The position numbers were made by a program, and so were the translations under genes. This document shows positions 45,787 to 64,000 of a DNA stretch of 64,000 nucleotides, piece by piece; within the stretch, counting starts at the first letter, position 1; each line of letters opens with the position of its first letter. Under the pieces are notes generated by a model that had not been told where the DNA came from, made no database searches, and saw only the letters and a program-made list of their open reading frames with translations. Source of the stretch: a virus; IMG/VR virus record IMGVR_UViG_3300042868_012479, positions 18,524 through 82,523 of that record, one strand, 5' to 3'.

Positions 45787-47961
45787 ATGGCCGAAAATCG
45801 CTCCCTTTTGAATCGAATCCTTAACAACGTAGGCATTAGCTTTGGTTCATCCGAAAAGGCCATGACTACGGTTCCGGATAGCAGCTCTTCGCCATACGCC
45901 CGTGGCGTTGCCGGCGTTGCCCACGTGCAAAAGCGCAGCAGCGGCCAGTTGCGCCGCTGGTCCCGAAACAACCCTTGGATTCGTGCCGCAATCAACCTTC
46001 GCCGAACTCAGGTTAGTCGCTCAAAGTGGGACATTGTCGCCCTAGATTCTGACAGCCCGGTGAACCCGGCAAAGGTCGCGCAAATTAAGCAGCTGCTGCG
46101 CCAGCCAAACTCAAAGATGGAATCCTGGCGCTCACTCATTGAGCCGGTCATTGAGGACATCCTCGTCCTCGACCAGGGCTGCCTTGAGGTTGAAATCACA
46201 CGTGGCGGCAAGCTTGGCCTAAAGAGCAATCCGGTTGCTGGCCTACACTCCAAGGATGCTGCCCGCATTGTTTTTGACGCAAGCTGGGACGGTAGCGACT
46301 CAAAGGCCCCTCGATACTACGAGATAGACGAAGCCGGCCGGCAAGTCAACACTTTCCTCAACCATGAACTTATTGTAATTATCTCCAACCCGGTAACCTA
46401 TACCCCCCTTGGCCTGTCCCCGCTTGAAGTGCTTGCAGACACAATTGAGTCTGACCTTGCAGCAGCCGCATACAACGCAAAGGCAGTTATGGCAGCGGCC
46501 CCACCTGGCGTGCTCCACCTTGGCGAGGGCGTTCGCCCAGATCAAGTTGATGCATTCCGGGCATATTGGGATGCCGAGATTGCCGGGCGCAGCCAAATTG
46601 CCATTACGGGCGGCGGCAAGGGAATGCAGTGGATGCCACTTGCCTCCTCTAATCGGGACATGCAGTTCATGGAGTGGCAGGTATATCTTGCCCGCAAGAT
46701 TTGTGCCGTCTTTGGCGTTCAGCCACAGGACATCGGCATTGGAATGGACGTCAACCGAAGCAGCTCCGAGACTGGTGCGGCCTTTACGCAAGACGTTGGC
46801 ATTGCGCCGCTCCTTGACCTGGTTGCCGAATACGTAACCCGGGAAATTGTTTGGCGCTTTGATGAAAACTTGCGATTTGCCTACACGGATATGGGTCGCC
46901 AGAGCCAGGGCGAAATGTCTGCCTATTACAAGCAGGCACTTGCGGGGCTTCCATGGCTTCGCCTCAACGACGCCCTTCGAGAGCGCGGACAAGACGGCGT
47001 TGGAGAGCAGGGCGAACAAATCTGGGTTCCAACTCCTCAGGGTTACATGCCAATGGATGTCTACATGAAGTATTTGGACAACCTTGTTGCTGGCGGTGCC
47101 CAGCCGTCCCCGGATGGAAATACGCCACCAACAGCAAATAATCCTCAGGGTGTCCCTACCCCGCCGCAGGGCTCTGACGTGACCCCAGACAACACTCCGC
47201 CTAACTCGCCACAGTCTCAGACCTCCAAGGCCGCTAGCGACCCGATCATTGTTTGTGATATCGATGGCACGCTGACAACGCAAGACGGGAGCACCGACCC
47301 CAACCCTGCAGTTATCGCCCATCTTCAGCGACAATCAGAAAACCACCGGATCTTTATTGTCAGTGCGCGATCAATCAAGCGCCGTGATGAAACCCTTGCC
47401 TGGCTTGAGGAGAACGAGGTGCCCAACGACGAGCTTTACCTGTCTGATTTCCCAGCCGGAGCAGGTCTGCAGTTCAAGCGAAATAAGATTTCCCATATTC
47501 TTAAGGACCACGGTGTTGTCGTTGAGGCAATTGAGAATGATGCGGAGGTCCGTGATGCCTATAAGGCAGCTGGAGCGCAGAATGTTCACGGCCCAGAGGA
47601 TATTGCAAAGAATTACGCTGCGGCAGACTATTCTGGCATTAGCCTAAATGTTCCTGCTGCAGTAAAGGCCGAGGCGGCACGTGGCCTCAAGTGGCGAGAA
47701 GAGTTTGGCCGTGGCGGCATTGGGCCTGGCCAGGCAACGGCTCGCATGCTCATTGGCAACAAGATGACTATTGCTCGAGTCCGAAAAATGCGCGCGTTCC
47801 TTGCTCGGCACGAAGTTGACAAGCAGGGCGAAGGGTTCAACCCGGGGCAGGCTGGTTATCCATCTGCTGGCCGGATCGCGTGGGCCCTCTGGGGCGGCAA
47901 CGCCGGGCAGTCTTGGTCTAACAAGGTAATGCGCCAGGTCGAAGCGGCCGAGAAGGCGTAA
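45787..47961 (+). CDS. Portal protein fused to HAD phosphatase and HEVDK/AGRIAW domain
   Basis: 724 residues. Residues ~40-420 are an HK97-family portal: NPWIRAAINLRRTQVSRSKW, FLNHELIVIISNPV, GLSPLEVLADTIE, the wing WQVYLARKICAVFGVQPQDI and NRSSSETGAAF. A Pro/Asn linker (~430-480) leads to a HAD domain at ~487-615 with nucleophile Asp491 and Asp493 in CDIDGTL, then SARSIKRRD, as in polynucleotide kinase 3'-phosphatase-type or AphA-type enzymes. The last ~90 residues (RARHEVDK-like LARHEVDK and SAGRIAWALWGG) are a domain seen at the ends of other phage proteins. Starts 1 base after its neighbour. The portal is the DNA gate; the added enzyme would sit in or on the neck. Confidence 0.85.
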   Translation: MAENRSLLNRILNNVGISFGSSEKAMTTVPDSSSSPYARGVAGVAHVQKRSSGQLRRWSRNNPWIRAAINLRRTQVSRSKWDIVALDSDSPVNPAKVAQIKQLLRQPNSKMESWRSLIEPVIEDILVLDQGCLEVEITRGGKLGLKSNPVAGLHSKDAARIVFDASWDGSDSKAPRYYEIDEAGRQVNTFLNHELIVIISNPVTYTPLGLSPLEVLADTIESDLAAAAYNAKAVMAAAPPGVLHLGEGVRPDQVDAFRAYWDAEIAGRSQIAITGGGKGMQWMPLASSNRDMQFMEWQVYLARKICAVFGVQPQDIGIGMDVNRSSSETGAAFTQDVGIAPLLDLVAEYVTREIVWRFDENLRFAYTDMGRQSQGEMSAYYKQALAGLPWLRLNDALRERGQDGVGEQGEQIWVPTPQGYMPMDVYMKYLDNLVAGGAQPSPDGNTPPTANNPQGVPTPPQGSDVTPDNTPPNSPQSQTSKAASDPIIVCDIDGTLTTQDGSTDPNPAVIAHLQRQSENHRIFIVSARSIKRRDETLAWLEENEVPNDELYLSDFPAGAGLQFKRNKISHILKDHGVVVEAIENDAEVRDAYKAAGAQNVHGPEDIAKNYAAADYSGISLNVPAAVKAEAARGLKWREEFGRGGIGPGQATARMLIGNKMTIARVRKMRAFLARHEVDKQGEGFNPGQAGYPSAGRIAWALWGGNAGQSWSNKVMRQVEAAEKA

Positions 47962-54151: not shown

Positions 54152-54227
54152 GGGGGTGTAGCTCAACGGTTAGAGCACTGAGCTTATATCTCAGCGGCTC
54201 CTGGTTCGAGTCCAGGCTCCCCTACCA
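54152..54227 (+). tRNA. tRNA-Ile (anticodon UAU)
   Basis: Full cloverleaf: D-stem GCTC/GAGC, anticodon stem CTGAG/CTCAG with loop CTTATAT giving anticodon TAT, T-stem CCTGG/CCAGG with TTCGAGT, and encoded CCA. Acceptor has one mismatch and one G-U. Reads the rare codon AUA without lysidine modification. Confidence 0.88.
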
Positions 54228-54233
54228 TCTATC

Positions 54234-54349
54234 TGCTATGCTTTTCCTAGCACGCTGGACCTGAAAGTTTAGCCCCTACTTTCCTTGGAGGGGCGACCAT
54301 ATCGGACCTTTAAGCGTCAGCGCTGCCCCCTGCGGGTTGGTCCAGGTGC
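54234..54349 (+). ncRNA. Candidate structured small RNA with own promoter
   Basis: TGC-TATGCT (54234-54242) predicts a start near 54249. The downstream bases are closed by CTGGACC (54255-54261) and GGTCCAG (54339-54345), a perfect 7-bp stem. Inside are a GCCCCT/AGGGGC hairpin and AGCG-TCAG-CGCT. No ribosome site or frame is present. An identical TGC-TATGCT box follows at 54347-54355 for the HNH gene. Confidence 0.45.
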
Positions 54350-54361
54350 TATGCTCCCCCT
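54347..54361 (+). promoter_or_regulatory. Leaderless extended -10 promoter for HNH gene
   Basis: TGC-TATGCT (54347-54355) is followed by six bases and ATG 54362. Its nine bases are identical to the box at 54234-54242. Confidence 0.6.
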
Positions 54362-54757
54362 ATGAAGTCTATCTCACGCTTTATGCACTACGTCGAAATC
54401 AACCAGGCCAACGGCTGCTGGGAGTGGACCGGCGCCTTTGACCGGAGTGGGTATGGTGCATTCAAGGATCAGGGCAAAAAAATAAATTCGCACCGGTGGA
54501 GCTACCGTCATTTTAAGGGCGAGCCACCGAAGGGGTTGGACATCGATCACCTCTGTCGCATCAGGAAGTGTGTCAGCCCAGAACATTTAGAGGCAGTCAC
54601 GCGAAAAGTCAACGTCCAGCGTGGTCTTGCTGCACAGGAGCGAAAAACCCACTGCATTCATGGACACGAATATACGCCAGAGAATACGTACCGATATCCG
54701 AGTGGCGGACGTGAGTGTCGGACGTGCAAGTACGATAATGGACGCATTCCGGAGTAG
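54362..54757 (+). CDS. HNH homing-type endonuclease
   Basis: 131 residues, leaderless. GCWEWTGAFDRSGYGAF, HRWSYRHFKGEPPKGLDIDH, LCRIRKCVSPEHLEAVTRKV are the HNH_3 pattern of homing endonucleases from phage; a C-terminal zinc set CIHGHEYT...CRTCKYDN follows. Its stop TAG is formed by the first bases of tRNA-Asn, so the gene ends inside the tRNA. A free-standing homing enzyme inserted between tRNA genes is plausible. Confidence 0.85.
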   Translation: MKSISRFMHYVEINQANGCWEWTGAFDRSGYGAFKDQGKKINSHRWSYRHFKGEPPKGLDIDHLCRIRKCVSPEHLEAVTRKVNVQRGLAAQERKTHCIHGHEYTPENTYRYPSGGRECRTCKYDNGRIPE

Positions 54758-54822
54758 CTCAGTGGTAGAGCGGGCGACTGTTAATCGCCTGGTCGTAGGT
54801 TCGAGCCCTACCTCCGGAGCCA
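54748..54822 (+). tRNA. tRNA-Asn (anticodon GUU)
   Basis: Acceptor TCCGGAG/CTCCGGA pairs perfectly; anticodon loop CTGTTAA gives GTT; T-loop TTCGAGC; CCA is encoded. The first ten bases double as the last codons of the HNH gene. Confidence 0.93.
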
Positions 54823-54826
54823 TCAC

Positions 54827-54901
54827 GGGCCGGTAGCTCAGCGGTAGAGTAGGGGTCTTTTAAGCCCTAGGTCGTGGGTTCGATCCCCACCCGGCTCTCC
54901 A
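54827..54901 (+). tRNA. tRNA-Lys (anticodon UUU)
   Basis: Acceptor GGGCCGG/CCGGCTC (one G-T), anticodon loop CTTTTAA giving TTT, T-stem GTGGG/CCCAC with TTCGATC, encoded CCA. Starts five bases after tRNA-Asn. Confidence 0.93.
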
Positions 54902-55180
54902 GGTATTTTAAAAAAATCCAGGCGCTCTTGTTGCCCCCAGCTGTTGTGTGTGGGGAGAGGGGTTGAGGGGATCTGGTGAAATCTTGATTATTGCGCAGTG
55001 AGCTCGTGTGGGCGGGGCTGTTCTGGTCTGGGCGAGGGGTTGGGGCGGGCTATGTCGATGTTCGGGCAACGGCGGGCAGCCAGCACATACACCCCCCATA
55101 GCCACCGATGAAACTTTCTCCGAGCTTCTCGCTGCCACCCCCACCCCCCGTAGCGGCCGACACGATTTCCGGCACGCGGG
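54902..55180. other. GC-rich spacer between convergent blocks
   Basis: No believable gene. Holds G-runs and, near 55049-55096, a degenerate copy of the cassette element in reversed orientation (CTATGTCGATGTTCGGGCAA followed, after a longer gap, by CCCCCCATAG). It marks the meeting point of the rightward tRNA block and the leftward cassette array. Confidence 0.5.
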
Positions 55181-55221
55181 CAACAAGAAACCCCCCGCTC
55201 GACCGATGCCGAGCGAGGGGC
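55181..55221 (-). terminator. Terminator of the last cassette
   Basis: CCCCTCGCTCG pairs with CGAGCGGGGGG, followed on the minus strand by TTTCTTGTTG, the tail shared by most terminators of the array. Confidence 0.8.
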
Positions 55222-55240
55222 GAAGATTTCCGGGGAGCGG

Positions 55241-55456
55241 TCAGCCGATTAGACCGAACTCCTCTGCCACGATCCAGACCGCGACGAACGCGCCGAACCC
55301 CGCGAACCCGCCGATGATGGCGAACGCTGGCGAGAACCAGAACGCGAACGAGCCGACCACCAAGCCGATGCCGCCTTCATACCCGAAGGCTGCGCCGAGT
55401 CCGATAGCCGACACCGCGACTACCACGGTCATCATTGTTGCTGCTACCTTGCTCAT
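55241..55456 (-). CDS. Small membrane protein
   Basis: 71 residues, GAGGTG upstream. Two or three hydrophobic helices (MMTVVVAVSAIGLGAAFGY, GLVVGSFAFWFSPAFAIIGG, FGAFVAVWIVAEEFG). It has its own promoter (55506-55534), a 5' stem-loop and terminator, so forms a one-gene unit. Not recognised; possible superinfection-exclusion or holin-like protein. Confidence 0.65.
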   Translation of the reverse strand: MSKVAATMMTVVVAVSAIGLGAAFGYEGGIGLVVGSFAFWFSPAFAIIGGFAGFGAFVAVWIVAEEFGLIG

Positions 55457-55505
55457 CTGTTCACCTCTTTGTCGGTTCGGGTCTGTGCCTACCCCCGACT
55501 ACTGA

Positions 55506-55534
55506 ATACTACGCCACCCACTCAACCAAGTCAA
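55506..55534 (-). promoter_or_regulatory. Sigma70-type promoter
   Basis: TTGACT, 17 bases, TAGTAT. The transcript would begin near a TCGGG/CCCGA stem, followed by GCACAGA and the ribosome site. Confidence 0.75.
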
Positions 55535-55597
55535 ACCACTCGACCTAGTCCGACCGAGCCGACCCAACGCCCGACCGACCGCATGACCGAACCGCGC

Positions 55598-55644
55598 GGG
55601 GGTATGGGGGGGAATACAAACGCCCTAATAGGTCTGCGAAAAAA
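55598..55644 (-). repeat. Cassette element, copy 1
   Basis: Minus strand: TTTTTTC, 6 bases, CTATTAG, 19 bases, ATA within CCCCCATACCCCC. Lies between the upstream terminator and the promoter, 64 bp before the -35. Confidence 0.8.
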
Positions 55645-55700
55645 TGACCCGACCCACAAAATCCGGCGAGCGGTCAGCAGAAAAAAAAGAAGCTCCGAAA

Positions 55701-55734
55701 GCAAGAAGCCCCACCCCCGAAGGGGTGAGGCTTC
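55701..55734 (-). terminator. Cassette terminator
   Basis: GAAGCCTCACCCC-TTCG-GGGGTGGGGCTTC, a near-perfect stem with UUCG loop, followed by TTGCTTT. Confidence 0.85.
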
Positions 55735-55753
55735 GTTGCGCCCGACCGACCGA

Positions 55754-56233
55754 CTAGCAGCCGAGCGGGGAGTCCTCGCCAAGAGGCTGCGACTCGCCGC
55801 CGATGACCCACGCCGTCAAGCGGGTGAGGTTCACCGTTCGGTGAGAGTGGAAGGGTCGTCGCTTCTCGCACGCCGACCCCGCCTTCCCTGCGTTCGGACA
55901 AGCGACCGTGTAGCCGTACTCGGTCGGAGCCATCACGACGAGGTCAACCACAGGCTCGCCCTTCTTGGTGAGATAGACCCCCGTGGCGTGAACATCACGA
56001 TTCACCTGACCCGCTACGGAGAAGTGGAACACCTCGCCTTTCGGCGTGGTGAACGCTTCGCCTGTGGTCTTGACTCGACCAAGCGCACGATGCTCGGCGA
56101 AGTTGGCGGCGGCGTTCGCCTCTCGGCGCGCCTTCTCCTTATCGCTAGTTGGCGCGCTCCACGCCTCGACCTTGATGATTTTTCCGCCACTCTTGGCGGC
56201 TGCGGCTAGCCCCGCTGCGTAGGTCATTGCCAT
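55754..56233 (-). CDS. Paralogous orphan family, member A
   Basis: 159 residues from ATG 56233 (GGGAG site 7 bases before). The core HRALGRVKTTGEAF, VNRDVHATGVYLTKKGEP, APTEYGYTVACPNAGKAGSA and CEKRRPFHSHRTVNLTRL is shared with the genes at 58934 and 61263. Two Cys and two His (CPN..C..H.H) could bind zinc. Promoter and terminator of its own. No known family; three copies in 6 kb point to gene duplication and a dose- or target-dependent role. Confidence 0.7.
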   Translation of the reverse strand: MAMTYAAGLAAAAKSGGKIIKVEAWSAPTSDKEKARREANAAANFAEHRALGRVKTTGEAFTTPKGEVFHFSVAGQVNRDVHATGVYLTKKGEPVVDLVVMAPTEYGYTVACPNAGKAGSACEKRRPFHSHRTVNLTRLTAWVIGGESQPLGEDSPLGC

Positions 56234-56292
56234 CTGGCTTCTCCCTGTCGGAGCGGAACCGAGCGGCTCCGTCTGTGTTCCCCGACCTGTTG

Positions 56293-56321
56293 ATTGTCGC
56301 AGGTCGCACGCCCGAACGCAA
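56293..56321 (-). promoter_or_regulatory. Sigma70-type promoter
   Basis: TTGCGT, 17 bases, GACAAT, the weakest -10 of the array. Confidence 0.65.
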
Positions 56322-56437
56322 GCCCGACGCATCAGGCGCAACGCTATCCATCAGCCGCCGTTGCCCAGCCGCCGGCATAGCCTATGAAGCTCCAAACAGA
56401 ATGAATAATGAATGAATGAATAGCGAATGAATACAAA

Positions 56438-56610
56438 GGGGTATGGGGGGGAGTGAGTCGCCCTAATAGATGCCCGAAAAAAATGATGCCCGTTCGCCGG
56501 GTAAACGCTAGGCCGAGCATTGCCCGAACATCGACACGGCTGGAGCTATTCGCAGTCAGCGGGGGTATGGGGGGGGAACCGAGGCCGAGCAGTAGAGGCC
56601 TCAACAAAAA
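56438..56610 (-). repeat. Cassette elements, copies 2 and 3
   Basis: Copy 2 (56438-56483) is canonical, CTATTAG spaced 18 from the ATA. Copy 3 (56561-56610) keeps the C-rich core but its second box is degenerate and merges with the terminator's T-tract. GCCCGAACATCGACAC lies between them. Confidence 0.75.
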
Positions 56611-56640
56611 GACCCCACCCCCGAAGGGGTGAGGCCTTGT
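56602..56640 (-). terminator. Cassette terminator
   Basis: CCTCACCCC-TTCG-GGGGTGGGG followed by TCTTTTTGTTG on the minus strand. Confidence 0.83.
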
Positions 56641-56661
56641 TGCCCGTTCGCCGGCGAGCGG

Positions 56662-57045
56662 TCAGAACGGAGCGGGTTCCTCGTTCTGGTAGGTGTACGC
56701 CTTGCGCGCCATCGTCCGCATCTTGCGGATGGTGCGCTCATAGCGCGTGCTGCTCTGCTGGTAGCAAGAGGCCACCCACTCGGTCAGTTCGGCGTCGGTC
56801 GTCCACTCCCAGAAGTCGAGAGGAAGGACGCCGAGGAGCGGGGCGGCGTCGCCACCCTGCCAGAGGTGAACCTCGTTCACAGGCGCAGCCATCCCGTAGA
56901 GGATGGCCTCATAGCGGATGACCTCGCCGTTGCCCGAATCCCGGCGAACGACCACCGACCGCTGCCAGAGCGAACCGCTGCGCTCGCCTTCCTGCTCATC
57001 TCCGAGAACTACCGAAAGGGTAGCCTTCTCATTACTCTTGGCCAT
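56662..57045 (-). CDS. Orphan cassette protein
   Basis: 127 residues from ATG 57045 with GAGGAGG upstream. Beta-rich start (TLSVVLGDEQEGERSGSLWQ) and helical end with Trp and Tyr (FWEWTTDAELTEWVASCYQQ). No recognised family. Single-gene unit with promoter at 57095-57123. Confidence 0.65.
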   Translation of the reverse strand: MAKSNEKATLSVVLGDEQEGERSGSLWQRSVVVRRDSGNGEVIRYEAILYGMAAPVNEVHLWQGGDAAPLLGVLPLDFWEWTTDAELTEWVASCYQQSSTRYERTIRKMRTMARKAYTYQNEEPAPF

Positions 57046-57094
57046 TGTTGGCCTCCTCTGTGCTTGGCGACGGAACACGGCCGCCGCTAGGTGA

Positions 57095-57123
57095 AGATTA
57101 CCGGAGCGCAGGCAACAACGCAA
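57095..57123 (-). promoter_or_regulatory. Sigma70-type promoter
   Basis: TTGCGT, 17 bases, TAATCT; leader contains a GC-rich stem and AGCACAGAGGAGG. Confidence 0.72.
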
Positions 57124-57218
57124 ATACGACGCACCAGGCACAACAGCGAAGGCGAAGCGCAGACCATACCTATCGAATCGAGTGGATGTATGTATATATA
57201 GATGAACAAAGAATAGAA

Positions 57219-57419
57219 GGGGTATGGGGGGGAATATGTTTGGAGTAATAGCCCATGGAAAAAACCTGCGAGCTGGAATCGTGGGGGTATGGGGGATTGC
57301 CCGAGTCTCGACATAGCTGGGTGAACGAACATCGGTGCGGCCGGTGGCGGTCATCGGCGTTGCAGCTGTGAAAGGGGGTATGGGGGGGAGCGGTCAGCGT
57401 CTAATAGGGGCATGAAAAA
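57219..57419 (-). repeat. Cassette elements, copies 4, 5 and 6
   Basis: Copies 4 (57219-57264) and 6 (57374-57419) are canonical, spacing 19. Copy 5 (57283-57316) has CTATGTC in place of CTATTAG at the same spacing. This is the only boundary with three copies. Confidence 0.78.
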
Positions 57420-57430
57420 TCGAGACGGGG

Positions 57431-57470
57431 GCAACAAGAAGCCCCCACCCCGAAAGGTGAGGGCTTCGTT
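57431..57470 (-). terminator. Cassette terminator
   Basis: GCCCTCACCTTTCGGGGTGGGGGC hairpin followed by TTCTTGTTG on the minus strand. Confidence 0.8.
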
Positions 57471-57491
57471 GCGGCCGGTAGCGGTCAGCGG

Positions 57492-57821
57492 CTAGTCGTC
57501 TAGGCTCTCCCCGAACTCGTAGCCGCAGGGCTCGCAGTAGTCGCCCGACCAGCCAGCCATCGCGTCGCACTTGGGGCAAACGCCCGAGGTGCTCATCTCG
57601 GTACAATCGACCCACGCCGAACGCTCGTCATCGAGCAGGAACTCTCGGGCATCGTCGGCGGTGTCGGCGTTGTACGCCGCCAACTCCGAAGCCAACTCGA
57701 TGAGGGCTGCCGTTGCCTCTGACCGGCCAGCGTGCCACGAGCGGTGCGTCTCGTTCTCCCAGACCACCTCGACCAGCCAGAGCACCTTCTCTTGTGCCGG
57801 AGTTTCTACCTTGTCTGCCAT
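57492..57821 (-). CDS. Orphan cassette protein with zinc ribbon
   Basis: 109 residues, AGGAG upstream. Helical acidic body (ALIELASELAAYNADTADDA) and a C-terminal ribbon CPKCDAMAGWSGDYCEPCGY, four Cys for zinc. Own promoter (57865-57894) and a CCAGCA/TGCTGG stem at the expected transcript start. Not recognised. Confidence 0.68.
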   Translation of the reverse strand: MADKVETPAQEKVLWLVEVVWENETHRSWHAGRSEATAALIELASELAAYNADTADDAREFLLDDERSAWVDCTEMSTSGVCPKCDAMAGWSGDYCEPCGYEFGESLDD

Positions 57822-57864
57822 CTTGGTTCTCCTCTCTGTGCCACCAGCAACTGCTGGCTATGCC

Positions 57865-57894
57865 ATCTTACACGGCCGGACAGGGGCAACGCAA
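57865..57894 (-). promoter_or_regulatory. Sigma70-type promoter with 5' stem-loop
   Basis: TTGCGT, 18 bases, TAAGAT. GCCAGCAGTTGCTGG begins at the predicted +1. Confidence 0.78.
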
Positions 57895-58017
57895 GTCCAG
57901 CGAACGAAGCCCCAGCGAGTTGCCCAAGTCTCGACATCGCTGCCCGCGCCCAGGAATCGTGTGTGTAGAGCTGCGCGTAATAGGTATCCCTAATAGATAA
58001 CCGAATGAATAGGAGAC

Positions 58018-58117
58018 GGGGGTATGGGGGGGAATGTTAGTCCAGTAATAGCCCACGGAAAAAACGCTGACCACTACCGGTGTGGGGGTATGGGGGAAAC
58101 TCGAGCCACGGACAATG
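58018..58117 (-). repeat. Cassette elements, copies 7 and 8
   Basis: Copy 7 (58018-58064) canonical, spacing 19 with CTATTAC. Copy 8 (58084-58117) keeps CCCCCATACCCCC but has CATTGTC as second box and no T-tract. Confidence 0.75.
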
Positions 58118-58125
58118 AGCGCGCA

Positions 58126-58166
58126 TAAAGAAACCACCCCCACCCCGAAGGGTGAGGGTGGCCTCG
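58126..58166 (-). terminator. Cassette terminator
   Basis: CCACCCTCACCC-TTCG-GGGTGGGGGTGG followed by TTTCTTTATG. Confidence 0.85.
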
Positions 58167-58186
58167 TTGCCTCTTACCGGTGTAGG

Positions 58187-58543
58187 CTACCCCTCGAAGT
58201 GTGTTGGCCAGACCTTTCGTGGCTCCTCTACGGCTACGACGAAGGCCAACGGCTTTCCGTCCGCCTCAACCCACGAGCCGTTCAGCCCATCAACGCTGGC
58301 CTCGGTCATCACCTCAACAGCCCAAGCAGGAGCGGCTTCCTCGGAGTCGGACTCGGGGCCGAACTCACGAACCGAGTCAATCTCAAGCACCGCGCCGATG
58401 GCCTGAATCATACCTCGAACCGTGGGCATCACATCACCGAAGGCCTCGGCCTCGGTTTCGTCATACGACCACCCACTCGCCAGATTGACCCGCTGACCGC
58501 TACCGGTGTCGGGCTTTGGTACGAAAACCAAGAAACGCCACAT
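58187..58543 (-). CDS. Orphan cassette protein
   Basis: 118 residues, GAGGGGG upstream. Begins MWRFLVFVPKPDTGSG, has a central helix (TVRGMIQAIGAVLEID) and a beta end (KPLAFVVAVEEPRKVW). Acidic. No family recognised. Own promoter and terminator. Confidence 0.65.
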   Translation of the reverse strand: MWRFLVFVPKPDTGSGQRVNLASGWSYDETEAEAFGDVMPTVRGMIQAIGAVLEIDSVREFGPESDSEEAAPAWAVEVMTEASVDGLNGSWVEADGKPLAFVVAVEEPRKVWPTHFEG

Positions 58544-58594
58544 AGCGTTCCCCCTCTCTGTGCTACTCGGCGAAGCAGGGCCGCCGAGGAGTCA

Positions 58595-58623
58595 AGTATC
58601 CCACCACGCAGGGGGCAAGTCAA
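58595..58623 (-). promoter_or_regulatory. Sigma70-type promoter with 5' stem-loop
   Basis: TTGACT, 17 bases, GATACT. CTCGGCG/CGCCGAG stem near +1, then AGCACAGAGAGG. Confidence 0.75.
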
Positions 58624-58743
58624 ATCCGCTGCCCGTGCCGCAAGGTGAGGCCAATCACGGGTGCTGACCGCTCATCAACATAAGCCATTCACTCGTGTAG
58701 CTGCGTATGTAGAGAGGAATGAAAAATGAACTAATGAATGAAA

Positions 58744-58840
58744 GGGGGTATGGGGGAATGAATGCCGGCCTAATAGCAGCCGGAAAAAATCGTGGGGGGT
58801 ATGGGGGGAATCCGGCAGGCCTAATAAGAGCACGAGAAAA
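58744..58840 (-). repeat. Cassette elements, copies 9 and 10
   Basis: Two near-identical copies in direct tandem (58744-58789 and 58794-58840), both with spacing 18; copy 10 has TTATTAG and a shortened T-tract. Confidence 0.82.
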
Positions 58841-58871
58841 TCGAACGCCGGTCAACAGCTTTACACGGGCA

Positions 58872-58911
58872 ATGAGAAGCCCCGCCGCCGGCACAGCACC
58901 GACGACGGGGC
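58872..58911 (-). terminator. Cassette terminator
   Basis: GCCCCGTCGTCGG pairs with CCGGCGGCGGGGC (two mismatches), then TTCTCATTG. Confidence 0.8.
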
Positions 58912-58933
58912 GACCGGCCGAGGCCGGCGACGA

Positions 58934-59401
58934 CTAGCAGCCCTGCTGCCGGTTGGCCTGCTCCTCTCCGGCAATCAGCCACGACACGAGCCGGGTGAGG
59001 TTGATGGTGCGGTGGCAATGGAACGGCCGTCGCTTGACGCACGCGCTCCCCAACTTGCCGGCGTTAGGGCAGGCCGTCGTATAGCCGTACTCCGTCGGAG
59101 CGGATACCACGATGTCCACGCAAGGCTCGCCCTTCTTGGTCAGGTACACACCGGCAGGGTGAATGTCGCGGTTCACTTGGCCGGCCACCCGGAACTCAAA
59201 GGTAATGCGGCCGGCTTCATCGGTGAACGCCGCGCCGGTCGTCTTGACTCGGCCAAGGGCGCGATGGTCGGCGTGGCGGCCGGCTGCGGCCGTTGCCCTA
59301 TCCTCGAACTCCTTCGGCTTGGTCGGTGCGCTCCACGCCGTCAGGACGACGACTTTGCCGGCACTCTTGGCCGCTGCTGCTAGGGCTTCCGTGTAGTCCA
59401 T
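58934..59401 (-). CDS. Paralogous orphan family, member B
   Basis: 155 residues, GAGGAG upstream. Aligns throughout with the genes at 55754 and 61263: ALGRVKTTGAAF, VNRDIHPAGVYLTKKGEP, SAPTEYGYTTACPNAGKLGS, CVKRRPFHCHRTINLTRL. The N-terminal ALAAAAKSAGKVV helix is also shared. Conserved Cys/His set suggests a zinc-stabilised fold. Closest to member A in the middle region. Function unknown. Confidence 0.7.
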   Translation of the reverse strand: MDYTEALAAAAKSAGKVVVLTAWSAPTKPKEFEDRATAAAGRHADHRALGRVKTTGAAFTDEAGRITFEFRVAGQVNRDIHPAGVYLTKKGEPCVDIVVSAPTEYGYTTACPNAGKLGSACVKRRPFHCHRTINLTRLVSWLIAGEEQANRQQGC

Positions 59402-59448
59402 ACCGGTTCTCCTCTCTGTGCTGCCGGCTCATCAGACCGGCTGCTGCC

Positions 59449-59478
59449 ATCTTACACCCGCCGGTGGCCACGAGTCAA
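59449..59478 (-). promoter_or_regulatory. Sigma70-type promoter with 5' stem-loop
   Basis: TTGACT, 18 bases, TAAGAT; GCCGGT...GCCGGC stem at the predicted start, then AGCACAGAGAGGAG. Confidence 0.78.
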
Positions 59479-59535
59479 GCCGGCGCGCTGGCCATTGACC
59501 GGCTCTTGATTGGCCGGCTCCGAACCGAACCGCGC

Positions 59536-59582
59536 GGGGGTATGGGGGGCTGGCCGGCTCGTGTATAGGGGCGCGAAAAAAA
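59536..59582 (-). repeat. Cassette element, copy 11
   Basis: C-rich core intact, spacing 18, second box CTATACA instead of CTATTAG, full T-tract. Confidence 0.78.
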
Positions 59583-59603
59583 CTGGCCGCCGGTATCAAC
59601 GGA

Positions 59604-59637
59604 CAACAGAAAGGCCGCCCCCGAAGGAGCGGCCTCT
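59604..59637 (-). terminator. Cassette terminator
   Basis: GAGGCCGCTCC-TTCG-GGGGCGGCCTTTC followed by TGTTG. Confidence 0.82.
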
Positions 59638-59662
59638 CGTTGCCCGAGTGTCGATCAGCGGC

Positions 59663-60157
59663 CTAGCCGGTGATGATCGCACCCTTCCGGCGGTTCTCAA
59701 TGCCCAACGCCCAAGCCAGATCTCCGTACGAAGTCCGAGCGTCGGCGAGCATCTGGAGATCCTCTGGACGCTGCTCCCAGAGCGCGACGATGGTACGGCG
59801 TGCCGACTCGGTGAGATCTCCGAAGTCCTCTTCGTCGTAGCCCGTTGAGTAGTGGGCAGCGTCATCTACCAACTCGCGGAACTCTGCCGGATTCATCGCC
59901 AAGACCACCCAACCCTCGTTGGTGCCGTTCGTTGACCGAATCTCGACAGAGACGAAGTCAAGGTCGCGGCTCGTGTGGTCATCCCAGAAGCGACCGGGAA
60001 CCAAGATCGCCTTCGCGGCCTTGCCGAGCGAGCGGCGAGCCGCATTCGCAGCGGCGTGCTCCTCATCAGTGATGGAGAGCAGGACGGCGCGGATGATTGA
60101 CCGCACCTCGATCAGACGCTTCTGGTTGCTCTCGTTGCTGAACGGATTTCCTTCCAT
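59663..60157 (-). CDS. Orphan cassette protein
   Basis: 164 residues; AAAGGGG upstream. Helical, acidic C-terminal half (YDEEDFGDLTESARRTIVAL); N-terminus opens NPFSNESNQKRLIEVRSIIR. No family recognised. Own promoter and terminator. Confidence 0.65.
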   Translation of the reverse strand: MEGNPFSNESNQKRLIEVRSIIRAVLLSITDEEHAAANAARRSLGKAAKAILVPGRFWDDHTSRDLDFVSVEIRSTNGTNEGWVVLAMNPAEFRELVDDAAHYSTGYDEEDFGDLTESARRTIVALWEQRPEDLQMLADARTSYGDLAWALGIENRRKGAIITG

Positions 60158-60208
60158 TGCGAACCCCTTTCGTCAGGGCGGGTCTGTGCCGACAACCCCA
60201 ACACCAAG

Positions 60209-60237
60209 AGAGTACATCGACACACGGGCAAGGTCAA
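60209..60237 (-). promoter_or_regulatory. Sigma70-type promoter
   Basis: TTGACC, 17 bases, TACTCT; leader contains GGCACAGA. Confidence 0.72.
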
Positions 60238-60286
60238 GTCCGACGCAGAGCCGGTACACCCCCCCCTAGGGGTGGCCTCTGGTCAA

Positions 60287-60388
60287 GGGGGTATGGGGGA
60301 AATAGCCGGCGGTAATAGGTGGCCTGAAAAAAACAGGGGCAGGGGGTATGGGGGAAATGATCGCGCGAGCAATAGCACCCGGAAAAAA
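60287..60388 (-). repeat. Cassette elements, copies 12 and 13
   Basis: Tandem pair (60287-60333, 60342-60388), spacings 17 and 19, second boxes CTATTAC and CTATTGC. Confidence 0.8.
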
Positions 60389-60430
60389 CGTTGCCCGTGT
60401 GAAGCTCGGCATTGCCCGTGTGAAGCTCTA

Positions 60431-60476
60431 CAAAGAGAAAGAGGCCGCCCCCCGCACAGATGGGGAGCGGCCTCGT
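60431..60476 (-). terminator. Cassette terminator
   Basis: GAGGCCGCTCCCC and GGGGGGCGGCCTC form the stem, followed by TTTCTCTTTG. Confidence 0.82.
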
Positions 60477-60493
60477 AGAAAACCCGGAGAGGC

Positions 60494-60952
60494 CTAGCGG
60501 TAGTCGCTCGGCATCACAGGCTCGGTGAGCGAGTCAATCCACACCGCACCAATCAGCGGCGTATCCAAGAGCGAAGACTCAACGGCCTCAAAGACCTCGG
60601 CACCGATAGCCGAAGTTTCTCCGCCCATAGCGTCTACGAAGTTGGCGAACTCGACCGGACTATCGGCAAAGGTAGCCGCCTGTGCCGGAGTCATAGTCTT
60701 CCAGTCGCTACCCTCGTAGTACGCCCAGAAGGAGCCGCCGCGCTCGTCGTCAGCCCAACCAATCAGAACCGCAAGAGCGGTGCCGTAGGTAGGTACATAG
60801 GCGATAAGGTCGTCGCCGTCGCCGTAGCGGACATAGACGCGATAGGCCGCGTCAGCCGGGAGCGTCTGGCGGCAAGCCGGGCAGGTTCCCTGCGACTGGT
60901 TGCCGAGGTACTTGCGAACCCACTTCTGCGCCGTAGTTGTGAGGTCTTCCAT
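60494..60952 (-). CDS. Orphan cassette protein with CxxC site
   Basis: 152 residues from ATG 60952 (GGAAGGAA upstream). CPACRQTL near residue 24 is half a zinc ribbon or rubredoxin knuckle; the middle is beta-rich (AAYRVYVRYGDGDDLIAYVP) and the end acidic. Not recognised. Confidence 0.65.
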   Translation of the reverse strand: MEDLTTTAQKWVRKYLGNQSQGTCPACRQTLPADAAYRVYVRYGDGDDLIAYVPTYGTALAVLIGWADDERGGSFWAYYEGSDWKTMTPAQAATFADSPVEFANFVDAMGGETSAIGAEVFEAVESSLLDTPLIGAVWIDSLTEPVMPSDYR

Positions 60953-61001
60953 CTGTTCCTTCCTTCCTGTGCCTGTGCCGTTGGCAAGTGCCAACACCAG
61001 A

Positions 61002-61029
61002 AAGGTAGCAGGTCTACGGCGGAAGTCAA
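61002..61029 (-). promoter_or_regulatory. Sigma70-type promoter with 5' stem-loop
   Basis: TTGACT, 16 bases, TACCTT; GTTGGCACTTGCCAAC at the predicted start. Confidence 0.73.
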
Positions 61030-61076
61030 GTCGAGGTGCGCCGGTCGCAACCGGTAGGGAAGGCCGCCGGTAGGAA

Positions 61077-61171
61077 GGGGGGTATGGGGGAACGCGCGCC
61101 CCTGTATAGAGGCGTGAAAAAAACAGGGGGTATGGGGGAATAAATGAACTCCTAATAAGAGCCGGAAAAAA
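61077..61171 (-). repeat. Cassette elements, copies 14 and 15
   Basis: Tandem pair (61077-61123 and 61126-61171), only 2 bp apart, spacings 17 and 18, second boxes CTATACA and TTATTAG. Confidence 0.82.
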
Positions 61172-61201
61172 CCAAGCTGGACAGGCGAACTAGTCCGGCA
61201 A

Positions 61202-61246
61202 CAAAGAGAGGCCGCCACTCCCGCACAGATGAGAGCGACGGCCTCG
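61202..61246 (-). terminator. Cassette terminator
   Basis: GAGGCCG..CGGCCTC outer stem with an inner CTC/GAG pair, followed by TCTTTGTTG. Confidence 0.75.
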
Positions 61247-61262
61247 GAGATAACGCGAGCGG

Positions 61263-61718
61263 CTAGCCCTCGACTTGTTCCTCACCCGCGATGACCCACG
61301 ACACGAGGCGCGTGAGGTTCACGCTCCGGTGCGCGTGGAACGGCTTCCGCTTCTCGCAAGCAGTACCGAGCTTCCCCGCGTTCGGACAGGCCGTAGTGTA
61401 TCCGTACTCCGTAGGTGCTCCAATGATGAGCGAGAGCGTAGGCTCGCCCTTCTTGTTCAGCACGATTCCGGTGGCCTCTTGCGTGCGGTCAAGCATACCG
61501 GAAGCCGTGAACAGGAACGATACGCGCCCCCTCTCATCGTAGCGAGCTTCACCGGACACCTTCACGCGACCAATCGCGCGGTGTTCGGCCTGCCGGCCTG
61601 CTGCGCCTTCCTCGCGACGCTCCAATGTTCGCGGCGTTGTCCAATCGCTCCACGCCGTCAGGGTGGTAATCTTACCTGCGGCCTTCGCCGCTGCTGCTAG
61701 TGCTTGCTGTGTGTTCAT
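61263..61718 (-). CDS. Paralogous orphan family, member C
   Basis: 151 residues, GGAAGGAA upstream. Third copy of the family (ALAAAAKAAGKITTLTAWSD, AIGRVKVSGEA, GAPTEYGYTTACPNAGKLGT, CEKRKPFHAHRSVNLTRLVS). The middle is the most divergent: VLNKKGEPTLSL replaces VYLTKKGEP. Shares its transcript with no other gene; promoter 61762-61791. Confidence 0.7.
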   Translation of the reverse strand: MNTQQALAAAAKAAGKITTLTAWSDWTTPRTLERREEGAAGRQAEHRAIGRVKVSGEARYDERGRVSFLFTASGMLDRTQEATGIVLNKKGEPTLSLIIGAPTEYGYTTACPNAGKLGTACEKRKPFHAHRSVNLTRLVSWVIAGEEQVEG

Positions 61719-61761
61719 AGGTTCCTTCCTTCCTACTACGCCGGAAAGCTCCGGTGATTAG

Positions 61762-61791
61762 ATACTACACCCAACCACCGGAGCGCGTCAA
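61762..61791 (-). promoter_or_regulatory. Sigma70-type promoter with 5' stem-loop
   Basis: TTGACG, 18 bases, TAGTAT; CCGGAGCTTTCCGG at the predicted start. The -35 touches the upstream stop, and this short boundary has neither terminator nor element. Confidence 0.77.
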
Positions 61792-61792
61792 A

Positions 61793-62191
61793 TCAGGCCA
61801 CCGACTCGCGGAGTGTGTACCCGCCGGCAACGAGAACGCCGGAAATCTTGTCGGCCTCATCAGCCGTGAAGCTTCGGTGGTCGCTCCCTTGATTCACTAG
61901 TAGAACAGCATGACCAACAAGGCCGCCGCCGAATAGATACGCCGGAGCCGAGTTCGTCGCTTCTGCGAGCAAATCACACGCCGCCAAGTTCATCAGTACC
62001 GGCTGATGGTAGAGGCCTTCCTCATCAACCCAGAGAATCACCGGAACACCCGCAAGCTCGCCGGTGCCGGCAATCTCCACAAGGTCGCACCCAATCGTGC
62101 GGTACATCTCGCCGAGGCCTTCCTCATTATTCCAAGAAATCCGCTCAATCCACGAGCCGGACTCGTCTACCTTTACGACAAATGCGAACAT
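61793..62191 (-). CDS. DUF3846-like protein
   Basis: 132 residues, GGAG upstream. TIGCDLVEIAG, WVDEEGLYHQPVLMNLAAC and YLFGGGLVGHAVLL follow the pattern of the DUF3846 family, found in phages and plasmids with no known function. Own promoter; lacks a terminator, so read-through into member C is likely. Confidence 0.72.
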   Translation of the reverse strand: MFAFVVKVDESGSWIERISWNNEEGLGEMYRTIGCDLVEIAGTGELAGVPVILWVDEEGLYHQPVLMNLAACDLLAEATNSAPAYLFGGGLVGHAVLLVNQGSDHRSFTADEADKISGVLVAGGYTLRESVA

Positions 62192-62234
62192 CTGCGCTCT
62201 CCTTCCTTACTCATCGGGAAGCCCCGACACAGAG

Positions 62235-62264
62235 AGAATACACCCAACCGATAGGCCGCGTCAA
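62235..62264 (-). promoter_or_regulatory. Sigma70-type promoter with 5' stem-loop
   Basis: TTGACG, 18 bases, TATTCT; TCGGGGCTTCCCGA at the predicted start. Confidence 0.78.
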
Positions 62265-62309
62265 ATCCGGCAAGTCGAGCTACGGCTACCGGTACGCGAC
62301 CGGCGAGCT

Positions 62310-62355
62310 GGGGGGTATGGGGGGAGTCGCGCCCGTGATAGAGCGCATGAAAAAA
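62310..62355 (-). repeat. Cassette element, copy 16
   Basis: C-rich core; second box CTATCAC, about 17 from the ATA. Its T-tract is also the tail of the upstream terminator hairpin. Confidence 0.76.
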
Positions 62356-62382
62356 CCCCCAGCTGGGATGAGCAGCTGGGGG
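62350..62382 (-). terminator. Cassette terminator fused to element copy 16
   Basis: CCCCCAGCTG and CAGCTGGGGG form a perfect 10-bp stem followed by TTTTTT. Confidence 0.92.
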
Positions 62383-62412
62383 CGTAGTCCGGTGGAAAGG
62401 ATCACCGGCGTA

Positions 62413-62697
62413 TTATTCGGGGCTGATGAAACGGCCTTCCTCTCCGTTCTCCATCAAGATAAAGTCGGCCAAGCGGCGCGCGATAGTGTCGGCGTTCTCG
62501 TGGCGGCCTAGCACCGGATACCCTGCCGTACAACCGGCGGAGTAGTCGTAGCCGTCATTAGCGCGCTGCCAAAGCGTACCGCCAAAGTTCACGCCATCCG
62601 TACTCATCAAGGCCACCCACGAATCATCCGCTAGGTCAATGCGAAGGTATCCGGCCTCGCTCATCTCGTATAGTTCAGTTCCTTCTAATCCCATCAT
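62413..62697 (-). CDS. Hypothetical protein
   Basis: 94 residues (start ATG 62697, or the next codon; AGGAGAGAG upstream). Beta-rich with GYLRIDLADDSWVALMSTDG and YDYSAGCTAGYPVLG. Last gene of a three-gene unit read from 63166-63195, ending at a strong terminator. Not recognised. Confidence 0.62.
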   Translation of the reverse strand: MMGLEGTELYEMSEAGYLRIDLADDSWVALMSTDGVNFGGTLWQRANDGYDYSAGCTAGYPVLGRHENADTIARRLADFILMENGEEGRFISPE

Positions 62698-62709
62698 CTC
62701 TCTCCTATC

Positions 62710-62883
62710 TCATCCTGCCGGAGCACAAACGGCATCCGCGCAAGGCCATCCTAGCACTACTGCTACCAATGACGCAAGTACGAGCAGCGCGAACACAAGC
62801 TTCACTCGTTCCATACGACGCTGATGTGCGAACCACGCTTCGGACTCGCGTAGGTACTCGGCCTTCGTAATAAGGCTACGCAT
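62710..62883 (-). CDS. Small single-pass membrane protein
   Basis: 57 residues starting in a TAATG overlap with the preceding gene. One membrane helix (VKLVFALLVLASLVAVVLGW) with a basic cytoplasmic side before it and two Cys after it. Short and unrecognised, but the coupling supports it. Confidence 0.58.
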   Translation of the reverse strand: MRSLITKAEYLRESEAWFAHQRRMERVKLVFALLVLASLVAVVLGWPCADAVCAPAG

Positions 62884-63122
62884 TATTCGTACTCCTCATC
62901 GCTCAACGGATAGCCGGCCTCATCAAGAACCGCTAGCGCGCACTCGGCAATCGCATTGCGGTAGTCGCCGATGGTCGCCTTATCTCCGGGGTAGAACCCA
63001 CGGAAGTCCACATCAGGCAAGTCGTCAGGGGTCAGGCCACACGCGCCCTCAACCTTGCGAGCTACCGCGACATAGAACTTGCTGAACGGAACCGACAAGA
63101 CCTCGTTTACATCTCTGCTCAT
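62883..63122 (-). CDS. Hypothetical protein
   Basis: 79 residues, AAGGAG upstream. Mainly helical with an acidic end (AGYPLSDEEYE) and a motif DLPDVDFRGFYPGDKAT. First gene behind its promoter. Not recognised. Confidence 0.62.
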   Translation of the reverse strand: MSRDVNEVLSVPFSKFYVAVARKVEGACGLTPDDLPDVDFRGFYPGDKATIGDYRNAIAECALAVLDEAGYPLSDEEYE

Positions 63123-63165
63123 CGTTTACTCCTTCCTTCCTACACCGGCAACTGCCGGCTATGCC

Positions 63166-63195
63166 AGATTACACCCAACGCTATACAGAAGTCAA
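63166..63195 (-). promoter_or_regulatory. Sigma70-type promoter with 5' stem-loop
   Basis: TTGACT, 18 bases, TAATCT; GCCGGCAGTTGCCGG at the predicted start, identical in plan to the promoter at 57865. Confidence 0.8.
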
Positions 63196-63198
63196 ATC

Positions 63199-63435
63199 TC
63201 AGGTCGTCTCAATAAACTTAAACTCGGCTTCCTCGGTCGGGTCAAACGCAATAGGCCGACCGGCTGCCACCCAAGCGTCAAGCTCTACGCGCCACTTCCA
63301 CGGACTCTCAATGAGGTCAAGCAACAAGTCGCACCGGTCAGTAGTATTCGCATACTCGGCATAGCCGCCGTGAACCATTGCGCGAGCAAACGCCAACACA
63401 TCAGATTCGTCGTAAGGCCAATCAAATGTTCCCAT
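63199..63435 (-). CDS. Hypothetical protein
   Basis: 78 residues from ATG 63435 (GGAAGG upstream). Contains ESDVLAFARAMVHGGYAEYA and a Trp-rich segment (SPWKWRVELDAWVAAGR). Overlaps the zinc-ribbon gene upstream by 14 bases. Not recognised. Confidence 0.62.
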   Translation of the reverse strand: MGTFDWPYDESDVLAFARAMVHGGYAEYANTTDRCDLLLDLIESPWKWRVELDAWVAAGRPIAFDPTEEAEFKFIETT

Positions 63436-63574
63436 TATCCCTTCCTTCCTGTACGCCAATCTCCTCTAACGATGATACCTGCGCGTCAGCAAAGCACTCG
63501 GCACAGATACGCGATTCGTACTGCCGGTCGTCCTCTACTTCACTCCCGCACCAAGAACAAGCGTTCCTACTCAC
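63422..63574 (-). CDS. Small zinc-ribbon protein
   Basis: 50 residues from GTG 63574 with GGAAGGAG upstream. CSWCGSEVEDDRQYESRICA followed by ECF makes a four-Cys ribbon (CxxC, CxxC). Overlaps both neighbours. Function unknown. Confidence 0.6.
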   Translation of the reverse strand: MSRNACSWCGSEVEDDRQYESRICAECFADAQVSSLEEIGVQEGRDNGNI

Positions 63575-63935
63575 CTGATACTCCTTCCTTATGAGCCGCA
63601 TACTCATCGGCTACCCTACGAGCATACTGCTTGGCTTCCTCAAAGTCAATAAAGACCTCGCCCTCGTCGTTGTCGTGATAGACGACCTCGAACCACGCAT
63701 TATTGTGGAACTCAAGCGTGCCGGCCTTCTCGGCATCAGCGAGCTTCTCGTCGGTATCAAGCCCCTTCGCGTCAAGGTCGTTAGTATACCGGAGAACGCT
63801 CGTGCTGCCGTCTGGCTCGGTAAGGTGAACCCTCATCTCGCCGTTCCGGTAGATGACGATTTCCTTATCATCAGAGAACCACACCGGTTCGCAATCGTGA
63901 TACGGCGTAAAGAAGGCCGCGTCGTTCCTGCTCAT
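63567..63935 (-). CDS. Hypothetical protein
   Basis: 122 residues from ATG 63935 in a TAATG overlap. Beta-rich (KEIVIYRNGEMRVHLTEPDG) with a helical end (FEEAKQYARRVADEYAAHKE), very acidic. Not recognised. Coupled to the partial gene at the window end. Confidence 0.62.
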   Translation of the reverse strand: MSRNDAAFFTPYHDCEPVWFSDDKEIVIYRNGEMRVHLTEPDGSTSVLRYTNDLDAKGLDTDEKLADAEKAGTLEFHNNAWFEVVYHDNDEGEVFIDFEEAKQYARRVADEYAAHKEGVSGE

Positions 63936-64000
63936 TAGTTCCACCCAACTTCCTGCCACGCGACAAAGCACTCGTCGCACAAATCCACCGACTCCTCATA
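63935..64000 (-). CDS. Zinc-ribbon-like protein, C-terminal fragment
   Basis: Only the last 21 residues are inside the window, including LCDECFVAWQEVGWN. The CDEC pair suggests another small zinc ribbon. Start outside. Confidence 0.5.
   Translation of the reverse strand, partial: YEESVDLCDECFVAWQEVGWN

What the first reader, a model, noticed from the sequence alone, without database searches (positions are those of the whole stretch)
55598..62355. Sixteen copies of an undescribed ~47-bp intergenic element in a gene-cassette array
Reading the minus strand, each boundary that has a terminator carries 1-3 copies of TTTTTTC-6-CTATTAG-(16-19)-ATA inside CCCCCATACCCCC, always in the orientation of the genes and always between a terminator and the next promoter. 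The 6-base gap between the T-tract and CTATTAG is nearly fixed (7 in copies 12 and 16), while the gap to the C-rich core varies by only about three bases, as expected for two protein contacts. The 13-bp core resembles mycobacteriophage stoperators in size, one-way orientation and intergenic placement, but not in sequence. Alternatives: promoter of a phage-specific sigma or RNA polymerase (CTATTAG and CATACC at sigma-like spacing), or a seam for cassette swapping.
Basis: partly seen in the sequence, partly recalled or inferred. Interest (0 to 1): 0.9.

Follow-up and report, generated by a model that had tools for sequence, protein, structure and literature searches.

The report
C-rich spacers after phage gene terminators
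In an uncultured phage family, a row of small genes, each with its own promoter and terminator, is separated by one-way, C-rich, G-poor DNA spacers that look like a second, back-up stop signal for transcription, probably for the protein Rho; the spacers are real and conserved, but nobody has tested what reads them.

Summary
The minus strand at 55598-62355 holds 16 copies of C(5-8)-ATA-C(4-6) and the plus strand none; chance expectation is 0.002. Thirteen copies carry the T-tract and a CTATTA-like box at fixed spacing (a fourteenth more loosely), but only 4 have exact CTATTAG. At 62310-62355 the "T-tract" is the terminator's own U-tract. The exact 47-bp form is confined to one clade (window, L018/L029, L019/L032, L007). 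In about 20 further related contigs the same junctions carry other sequences of one kind: a G-poor UCAUUAUUCA-like stretch, then 2-7 C4+ tracts, usually 3 nt apart, on the coding strand only. The element tracks terminators (92 of 96 junctions with one, 11 of 154 without; promoter-only junctions 3 of 18). A C-rich, G-poor bubble also follows the array's last terminator, where no co-directional promoter follows.

I read the spacers as rut-like (Rho-utilisation) back-up terminators that insulate monocistronic units which are shuffled as promoter-gene-terminator blocks. Rho itself is inferred, and the host is unknown. The invariant ATA and T-tract/CTATTA box in the window's clade exceed what rut needs and may mark a sequence-specific reader. 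Promoter, G-quadruplex and strict-stoperator readings fit worse.

The parts
62310..62355 (-). element copy 1; its T-tract is the U-tract of the preceding terminator (62383-62355)
61126..61171 (-). element copy (T6C, CTCTTATTAG, C5ATAC5)
61077..61123 (-). element copy (CTATACA variant)
60342..60388 (-). element copy (CTATTGC variant)
60287..60333 (-). element copy (CTATTAC)
59536..59582 (-). element copy (CTATACA variant)
58794..58840 (-). element copy (T4C, CTCTTATTAG)
58744..58789 (-). element copy (exact CTATTAG)
58084..58096 (-). core only, no T-tract/CTATTA box
58018..58064 (-). element copy (CTATTAC)
57374..57419 (-). element copy (exact CTATTAG)
57283..57295 (-). core only
57219..57264 (-). 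element copy (CTATTAC)
56561..56610 (-). element copy, loose (T-run belongs to the terminator; CTACTG; T-end to ATA 37 nt)
56438..56483 (-). element copy (exact CTATTAG)
55598..55644 (-). element copy (exact CTATTAG)
54985..55062 (-). C-rich, G-poor 78-nt bubble (C/G 3.0) after the last terminator of the array; no ATA core and no co-directional promoter after it (coordinates approximate)
55190..55221 (-). last terminator of the array (no element core after it)
55754..56230 (-). array gene, family A paralog (cassette)
56662..57045 (-). array gene, family T
57492..57821 (-). array gene, family K
58187..58543 (-). array gene, family J
58934..59401 (-). array gene, family A paralog
59663..60157 (-). 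array gene, family G
60494..60949 (-). array gene, family F
61263..61718 (-). array gene, family A paralog; preceded by a promoter-only junction (61718-61792) with no terminator and no element
61793..62191 (-). array gene, family E (DUF3846-like, below cut-off)

Best explanation
The spacers are one-way transcription insulators. Each small gene has its own sigma-70-type promoter, 5' leader, gene and intrinsic terminator. RNA polymerase that runs past the terminator transcribes a ribosome-free, G-poor, C-tract-rich RNA, which acts as a Rho-utilisation (rut) site. Rho loads there and ends transcription in the roughly 125 nt before the next start codon, so neighbouring units do not read into each other and cassettes can be reordered freely. 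In the window's clade this rut-like spacer has been standardised into a repeated module (T6C - N6 - CTATTA - N16-19 - C5ATAC5) with extra sequence conservation. Shown here: position, strand bias, terminator association, C>G bubble, cassette shuffling, and purifying selection on core and T-tract.
For: Coding-strand C4N3C4 clusters number 15-53 in most array-bearing loci and 0 on the other strand. The element is at 92 of 96 junctions with a terminator, 11 of 154 without, and 3 of 18 with a promoter only (Fisher p 4e-50 and 2e-11). In the whole 82.5-kb record the co-directional terminator-then-promoter junctions of 200 nt or more are the array junctions, and all nine carry it. A published rut rule (78 nt, C>G, C every 11-13 nt; PMC6407284) finds windows with C/G>3 in 73% of relatives' spacers and 43% of window-clade spacers, versus 0% of coding sense and 0% of spacer antisense. 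Spacer maximum C-G over 80 nt is 21-27 (median) versus 4-4.5 in coding sequence. C-tracts are mostly unpaired in the window clade (0.70 versus 0.53 for C in shuffles). The array's last terminator, with no co-directional promoter after it, is also followed by a C-rich G-poor bubble in all 8 arrays examined (C/G 3.0 to 18), with different sequence. Sequences differ between clades while composition and place persist.
Against: No experiment, no RNA-seq, host unknown. Rut sites need no fixed sequence, yet in the window clade the core is 99-100% conserved between orthologous junctions against 75-81% in flanks, ATA never varies, and T-end to ATA spacing is fixed at 31-34 nt. In relatives the gap between C-tracts is 3 nt in 253 of 418 cases, which rut does not require. 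The last C-tract sits about 50 nt upstream of the -35 box, tighter in relatives than its distance to the terminator. Three of 21 window-clade spacers have overall C/G of 1 or less. Accessibility of C-tracts in relatives is barely above shuffles (0.62 versus 0.58). Rut prediction from sequence alone is known to be unreliable (PMC12350095).
Confidence: 0.5

Rival explanations
1. Sequence-specific site for an unknown phage or host protein that stops or slows RNA polymerase in one direction (works like a stoperator), with T-tract and C-core as two contacts about three helical turns apart.
For: Core and T-tract under strong purifying selection, ATA invariant, fixed T-to-ATA spacing with random intervening sequence; one-way orientation after terminators; clade-specific flavour of the site (within-genome 4-mer similarity exceeds between-genome, permutation 0 of 2000, but small effect, 0.048). 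HTH proteins of unknown role are encoded.
Against: Relatives with the same genes keep composition but variable sequences. No integrase or recognised immunity repressor was seen in the record. Sites occur only in the array. Some copies are bare or loose cores.
Confidence: 0.25
2. A second class of promoter (middle/late) for each transcription unit: T-tract as UP-like element, CTATTA as -35, CATACC as -10.
For: Placed at the start of each terminator-bounded unit; absent from the two promoter-only junctions, which read-through could serve; 16-19 nt spacing between boxes.
Against: No sigma-70 region 2 or RNA polymerase among scanned proteins, only HTH/region-4-like hits. CATACC is not conserved in relatives, whose inter-tract trinucleotides vary widely. 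A C-rich bubble also follows the last terminator, where no co-directional gene follows. A -10 surrounded by C-tracts would melt poorly (established knowledge).
Confidence: 0.08
3. Recombination seam or hotspot at which cassettes are swapped.
For: Gene order in the element-bearing part is reshuffled between relatives while the nearly element-free upstream block keeps its order. For gene 56662-57045 the homologous block shared with L017 at a different array position runs from about the -35 box to just past the terminator and stops short of the element.
Against: The element also stands at junctions whose order hardly changes (after M and after D in most arrays), and G and S are found in both orders with no element between them. 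Strict coding-strand bias and terminator association are not predicted. No recombinase tied to it was found.
Confidence: 0.1
4. G-quadruplex on the template strand that blocks RNA polymerase.
For: Most relatives have clusters (up to 10 per locus) with at least four G4 tracts and short loops on the template strand.
Against: None in the window, L029 or L032, where each element has only two tracts, although these are the most conserved elements.
Confidence: 0.04

Closest known systems
Rho utilisation (rut) sites / Rho-dependent terminators
   Same: C-rich, G-poor, ribosome-free stretches of about 80 nt on the transcribed strand, followed by room for termination before the next gene.
   Different: Systematically paired with an intrinsic terminator at every unit of a phage gene array; in the window clade built from a repeated, sequence-conserved module; Rho dependence untested.
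Mycobacteriophage (Cluster A) stoperators
   Same: About 13-bp core, many copies, oriented with transcription, intergenic, would limit read-through.
Cluster O mycobacteriophage 17-bp repeats and Cluster DJ 50-bp motifs (PMC4351075, PMC9671010)
   Same: Repeated short phage motifs, many intergenic, of unknown or presumed regulatory role.
   Different: Cluster O repeats are palindromic and not oriented; the DJ motif contains a TATAAT promoter and sits at the start of genes; neither resembles this one.
SPO1 host-takeover module
   Same: Cluster of small genes in many short transcription units (from general knowledge).
   Different: SPO1 gaps show few and weak sense-strand C>G bubbles (best C/G 2.2, most 0), though the comparison is with a phage of different base composition.

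Membership tests
Rho-dependent terminator (rut site) | 78-nt C>G region with regularly spaced C on the transcribed strand | tested here: met
   Present in 20/21 window-clade and 48/52 relatives' spacers; C/G>3 in 43% and 73%, 0% in coding sense and in spacer antisense
Rho-dependent terminator (rut site) | Unstructured, ribosome-free RNA | tested here: inconclusive
   Intergenic, after the stop codon; C-tracts unpaired 0.70 versus 0.53 in shuffles for the window clade, only 0.62 versus 0.58 in relatives
Rho-dependent terminator (rut site) | Pause site within 150 nt downstream | not tested
   A 5'-leader hairpin lies downstream but pausing was not scored
Rho-dependent terminator (rut site) | Termination that depends on Rho | not testable with these tools
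   No host, no transcript data
Cluster A stoperator | Short non-palindromic site oriented with transcription, many copies | tested here: met
   16 cores, one orientation
Cluster A stoperator | Copies distributed across the phage genome | tested here: not met
   All copies lie in the array, none elsewhere in 82.5 kb
Cluster A stoperator | Bound by the phage's immunity repressor in a temperate phage | tested here: inconclusive
   No integrase among Pfam matches; only HTH/region-4-like proteins; binding not testable
Phage sigma-factor or RNA-polymerase promoter | Cognate sigma factor or polymerase encoded | tested here: not met
   No sigma-70 region 2 or RNA polymerase in about 80 scanned proteins; the record may be incomplete
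Phage sigma-factor or RNA-polymerase promoter | Transcription start at the element | not testable with these tools
   No transcript data
Template-strand G-quadruplex | Four G-tracts with short loops | tested here: not met
   0 in window, L029 and L032; up to 10 per locus in most relatives
Recombination cassette site | Breakpoints of rearrangement at the site, and site only at rearranged junctions | tested here: inconclusive
   Shuffled order in the element-bearing part, but elements also at conserved junctions and a swap without an element

The most novel reading that the evidence does not exclude
A dedicated, sequence-specific insulator module used once or more per transcription unit in a family of uncultured phages: an unknown protein reads T6 - CTATTA - C5ATAC5 (as RNA or DNA) and stops polymerase one way, replacing a looser C-rich signal seen in relatives, so that independent gene cassettes can be stacked and shuffled.
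Probability: 0.27. Interest if true: 0.85.

Novelty: new variant of a known kind. Interest (0 to 1): 0.6.

Why it matters
Phages that pack many small, separately expressed genes side by side must keep neighbouring units from reading into each other. Here is a natural, strongly patterned solution (hairpin terminator plus one-way C-rich spacer at each junction) that can be tested directly in a reporter, and a natural experiment in which gene order and spacer sequence vary across more than 20 relatives.

Tried and rejected
Isolated phages: no megablast match to the array, no tblastn match for the array paralog or the major capsid candidate; terminase and portal only remotely similar. Literature: no paper found that holds the core in a phage context; stoperator, Cluster O and DJ motifs differ. 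Rfam: no family in 55000-64000 at E 0.1. Host: the phage tRNA-Asn shares 50 exact nt with a few Verrucomicrobia/PVC and Terriglobus MAG contigs, which are otherwise unrelated to the phage, so the host stays unresolved; a Rho search among relatives of those MAGs could not be started. A collection scan for C4NNA repeats hit, apart from known relatives, unrelated contigs with (CCCCTGA)n-type heptamer repeats in other contexts; this warns that heptamer slippage can make 7-nt C4N3 registers. An RNA hairpin between the C-cluster and the G-run before the -35 box was considered; G-runs of 5 or more are common in relatives but occur at only 3 of 21 window-clade junctions, so it was not pursued. An enrichment of reverse-strand stop triplets (CTA, TTA, TCA) in the G-poor stretch was considered and not tested.
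Full report
What is there. The window is positions 18524-82523 of an 82.5-kb virus record. On its minus strand, 55.2-64 kb, lies an array of small genes read one way. Nine junctions between a terminator and the next promoter carry 16 copies of C(5-8)ATAC(4-6), 1-3 each, and the plus strand has none. A first-order Markov model of the array predicts 0.002. Thirteen copies have a T-run ending 31-34 nt before ATA and a fourteenth 37 nt before it; CTATTAG is exact in four. At 62355 the T-run is the preceding terminator's U-tract, which suggests that the module begins where a terminator ends.

Selection. Between orthologous junctions of the window and two diverged relatives (L029, L032), the C-core is 99.4% and 100% identical, the T-tract 98% and 92%, CTATTA 91% and 80%, N7 79% and 56%, flanks 81% and 75%. 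Between copies within the window the N positions are near chance identity (0.28-0.33 versus 0.26) while the T-to-ATA length stays fixed. So core, T-tract and spacing are constrained; CTATTA more weakly.

Relatives. Pattern and protein scans of viral contigs gave about 24 contigs with the array. The exact module is found only in the window's clade. Elsewhere the same junctions carry a G-poor stretch rich in UCA/UUA followed by a cluster of C4+ tracts, CCCCATACCCCACACCCC-like. C4N3C4 clusters are on the coding strand only, 15-53 in most array-bearing loci (fewer in short pieces; L050 has 1) and 0 on the other strand. Gaps between tracts are 3 nt in 253 of 418 cases, mostly ending in A.

Terminator, not promoter. 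In 12 arrays, 92 of 96 junctions with a called terminator have the element, 11 of 154 without; among promoter-bearing junctions 74 of 78 with a terminator and 3 of 18 without. Promoter-only junctions are short (about 75 nt), so length is a confounder. Outside the array the record has no long co-directional terminator-then-promoter junction. The last terminator of the array faces convergent genes, with no co-directional promoter; in the window it has no ATA core, yet in all 8 arrays examined a C-rich, G-poor stretch lies downstream on the coding strand, with C/G from 3.0 to 18 and different sequences. This is the observation that best separates a stop signal from a promoter or operator.

Rut-like composition. 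Using the published rule for RUT sites (PMC6407284), spacers give 78-nt windows with C/G above 3 in 73% (relatives) and 43% (window clade), coding sense 0%, spacer antisense 0%. C-tract bases are mostly unpaired in the window clade. Rut features and their limited predictive value are as in PMC12350095. From the last C-tract to the start codon is typically about 50 + 75 nt, room for Rho to act.

Cassettes. Gene families show an upstream block with conserved order and almost no elements, then an element-bearing part (families E, A, F, G, J, K, T, A in the window) whose order differs between relatives, always in the same orientation. For gene 56662-57045 the block shared with L017 at another position (about 92% identity) runs from near the -35 box to just after the terminator. 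The moving unit therefore looks like promoter-gene-terminator, and the spacer tends to have the flavour of its genome, though this effect is small. Elements at junctions that hardly change argue against a pure recombination role.

What does not fit. Invariant ATA and the T-tract/CTATTA box in the window clade go beyond composition and leave room for a sequence-specific reader. The steady distance of about 50 nt to the next -35 box is unexplained. Heptamer slippage, seen in unrelated contigs, could contribute to the 3-nt gap.

Verdict. A real, undescribed-as-far-as-searched, family-wide one-way spacer; most likely a rut-like insulating terminator (0.5), with a sequence-specific stop site as the main rival (0.25).

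Noticed in passing
window 55241-63200, minus strand; relatives L026-L033: Most array genes have the same kind of leader: a short hairpin at the predicted transcript 5' end followed by GCACAGAGAGGAG-like sequence and the start codon.
   Followed up: partly
L033, L028, L027 and others, just upstream of -35 boxes: Runs of 5-10 G directly upstream of the -35 box at many relatives' junctions (e.g. GGGGGGGGGGC-TTGAC), about 40-50 nt after the C-cluster; rare in the window.
   Followed up: partly
window 55754-56230, 58934-59401, 61263-61718, minus strand: Three paralogs of one protein family (57-67% identity to the first) with conserved APTEYGY and ACPNAGK; 26 members in 11 arrays, no Pfam match, no isolated-phage match.
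   Followed up: partly
window 54152-54901, plus strand: tRNA-Ile(tat), tRNA-Asn(gtt), tRNA-Lys(ttt) convergent to the array; tRNA-Asn shares 50 exact nt with some Verrucomicrobia/PVC and Terriglobus MAG contigs.
   Followed up: partly
array end, window about 54905-55062 minus strand; L026, L027, L029, L033, L055: A conserved stretch like CAACATTTCACCAGATCCCCTCAACCCCTC near the end of the array in most relatives.
   Followed up: no
window 45787-47961, plus strand: Portal protein whose C-terminal part matches polynucleotide-kinase and phosphoheptose-isomerase phage families, an unusual extension.
   Followed up: no
window 23669-35143, minus strand: A 3824-aa open frame in the structural region, not further analysed.
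   Followed up: no
L078, L080, L095, L112, L082: Viral contigs without detectable relation to this family that carry long (CCCCTGA)n-type heptamer repeats.
   Followed up: partly
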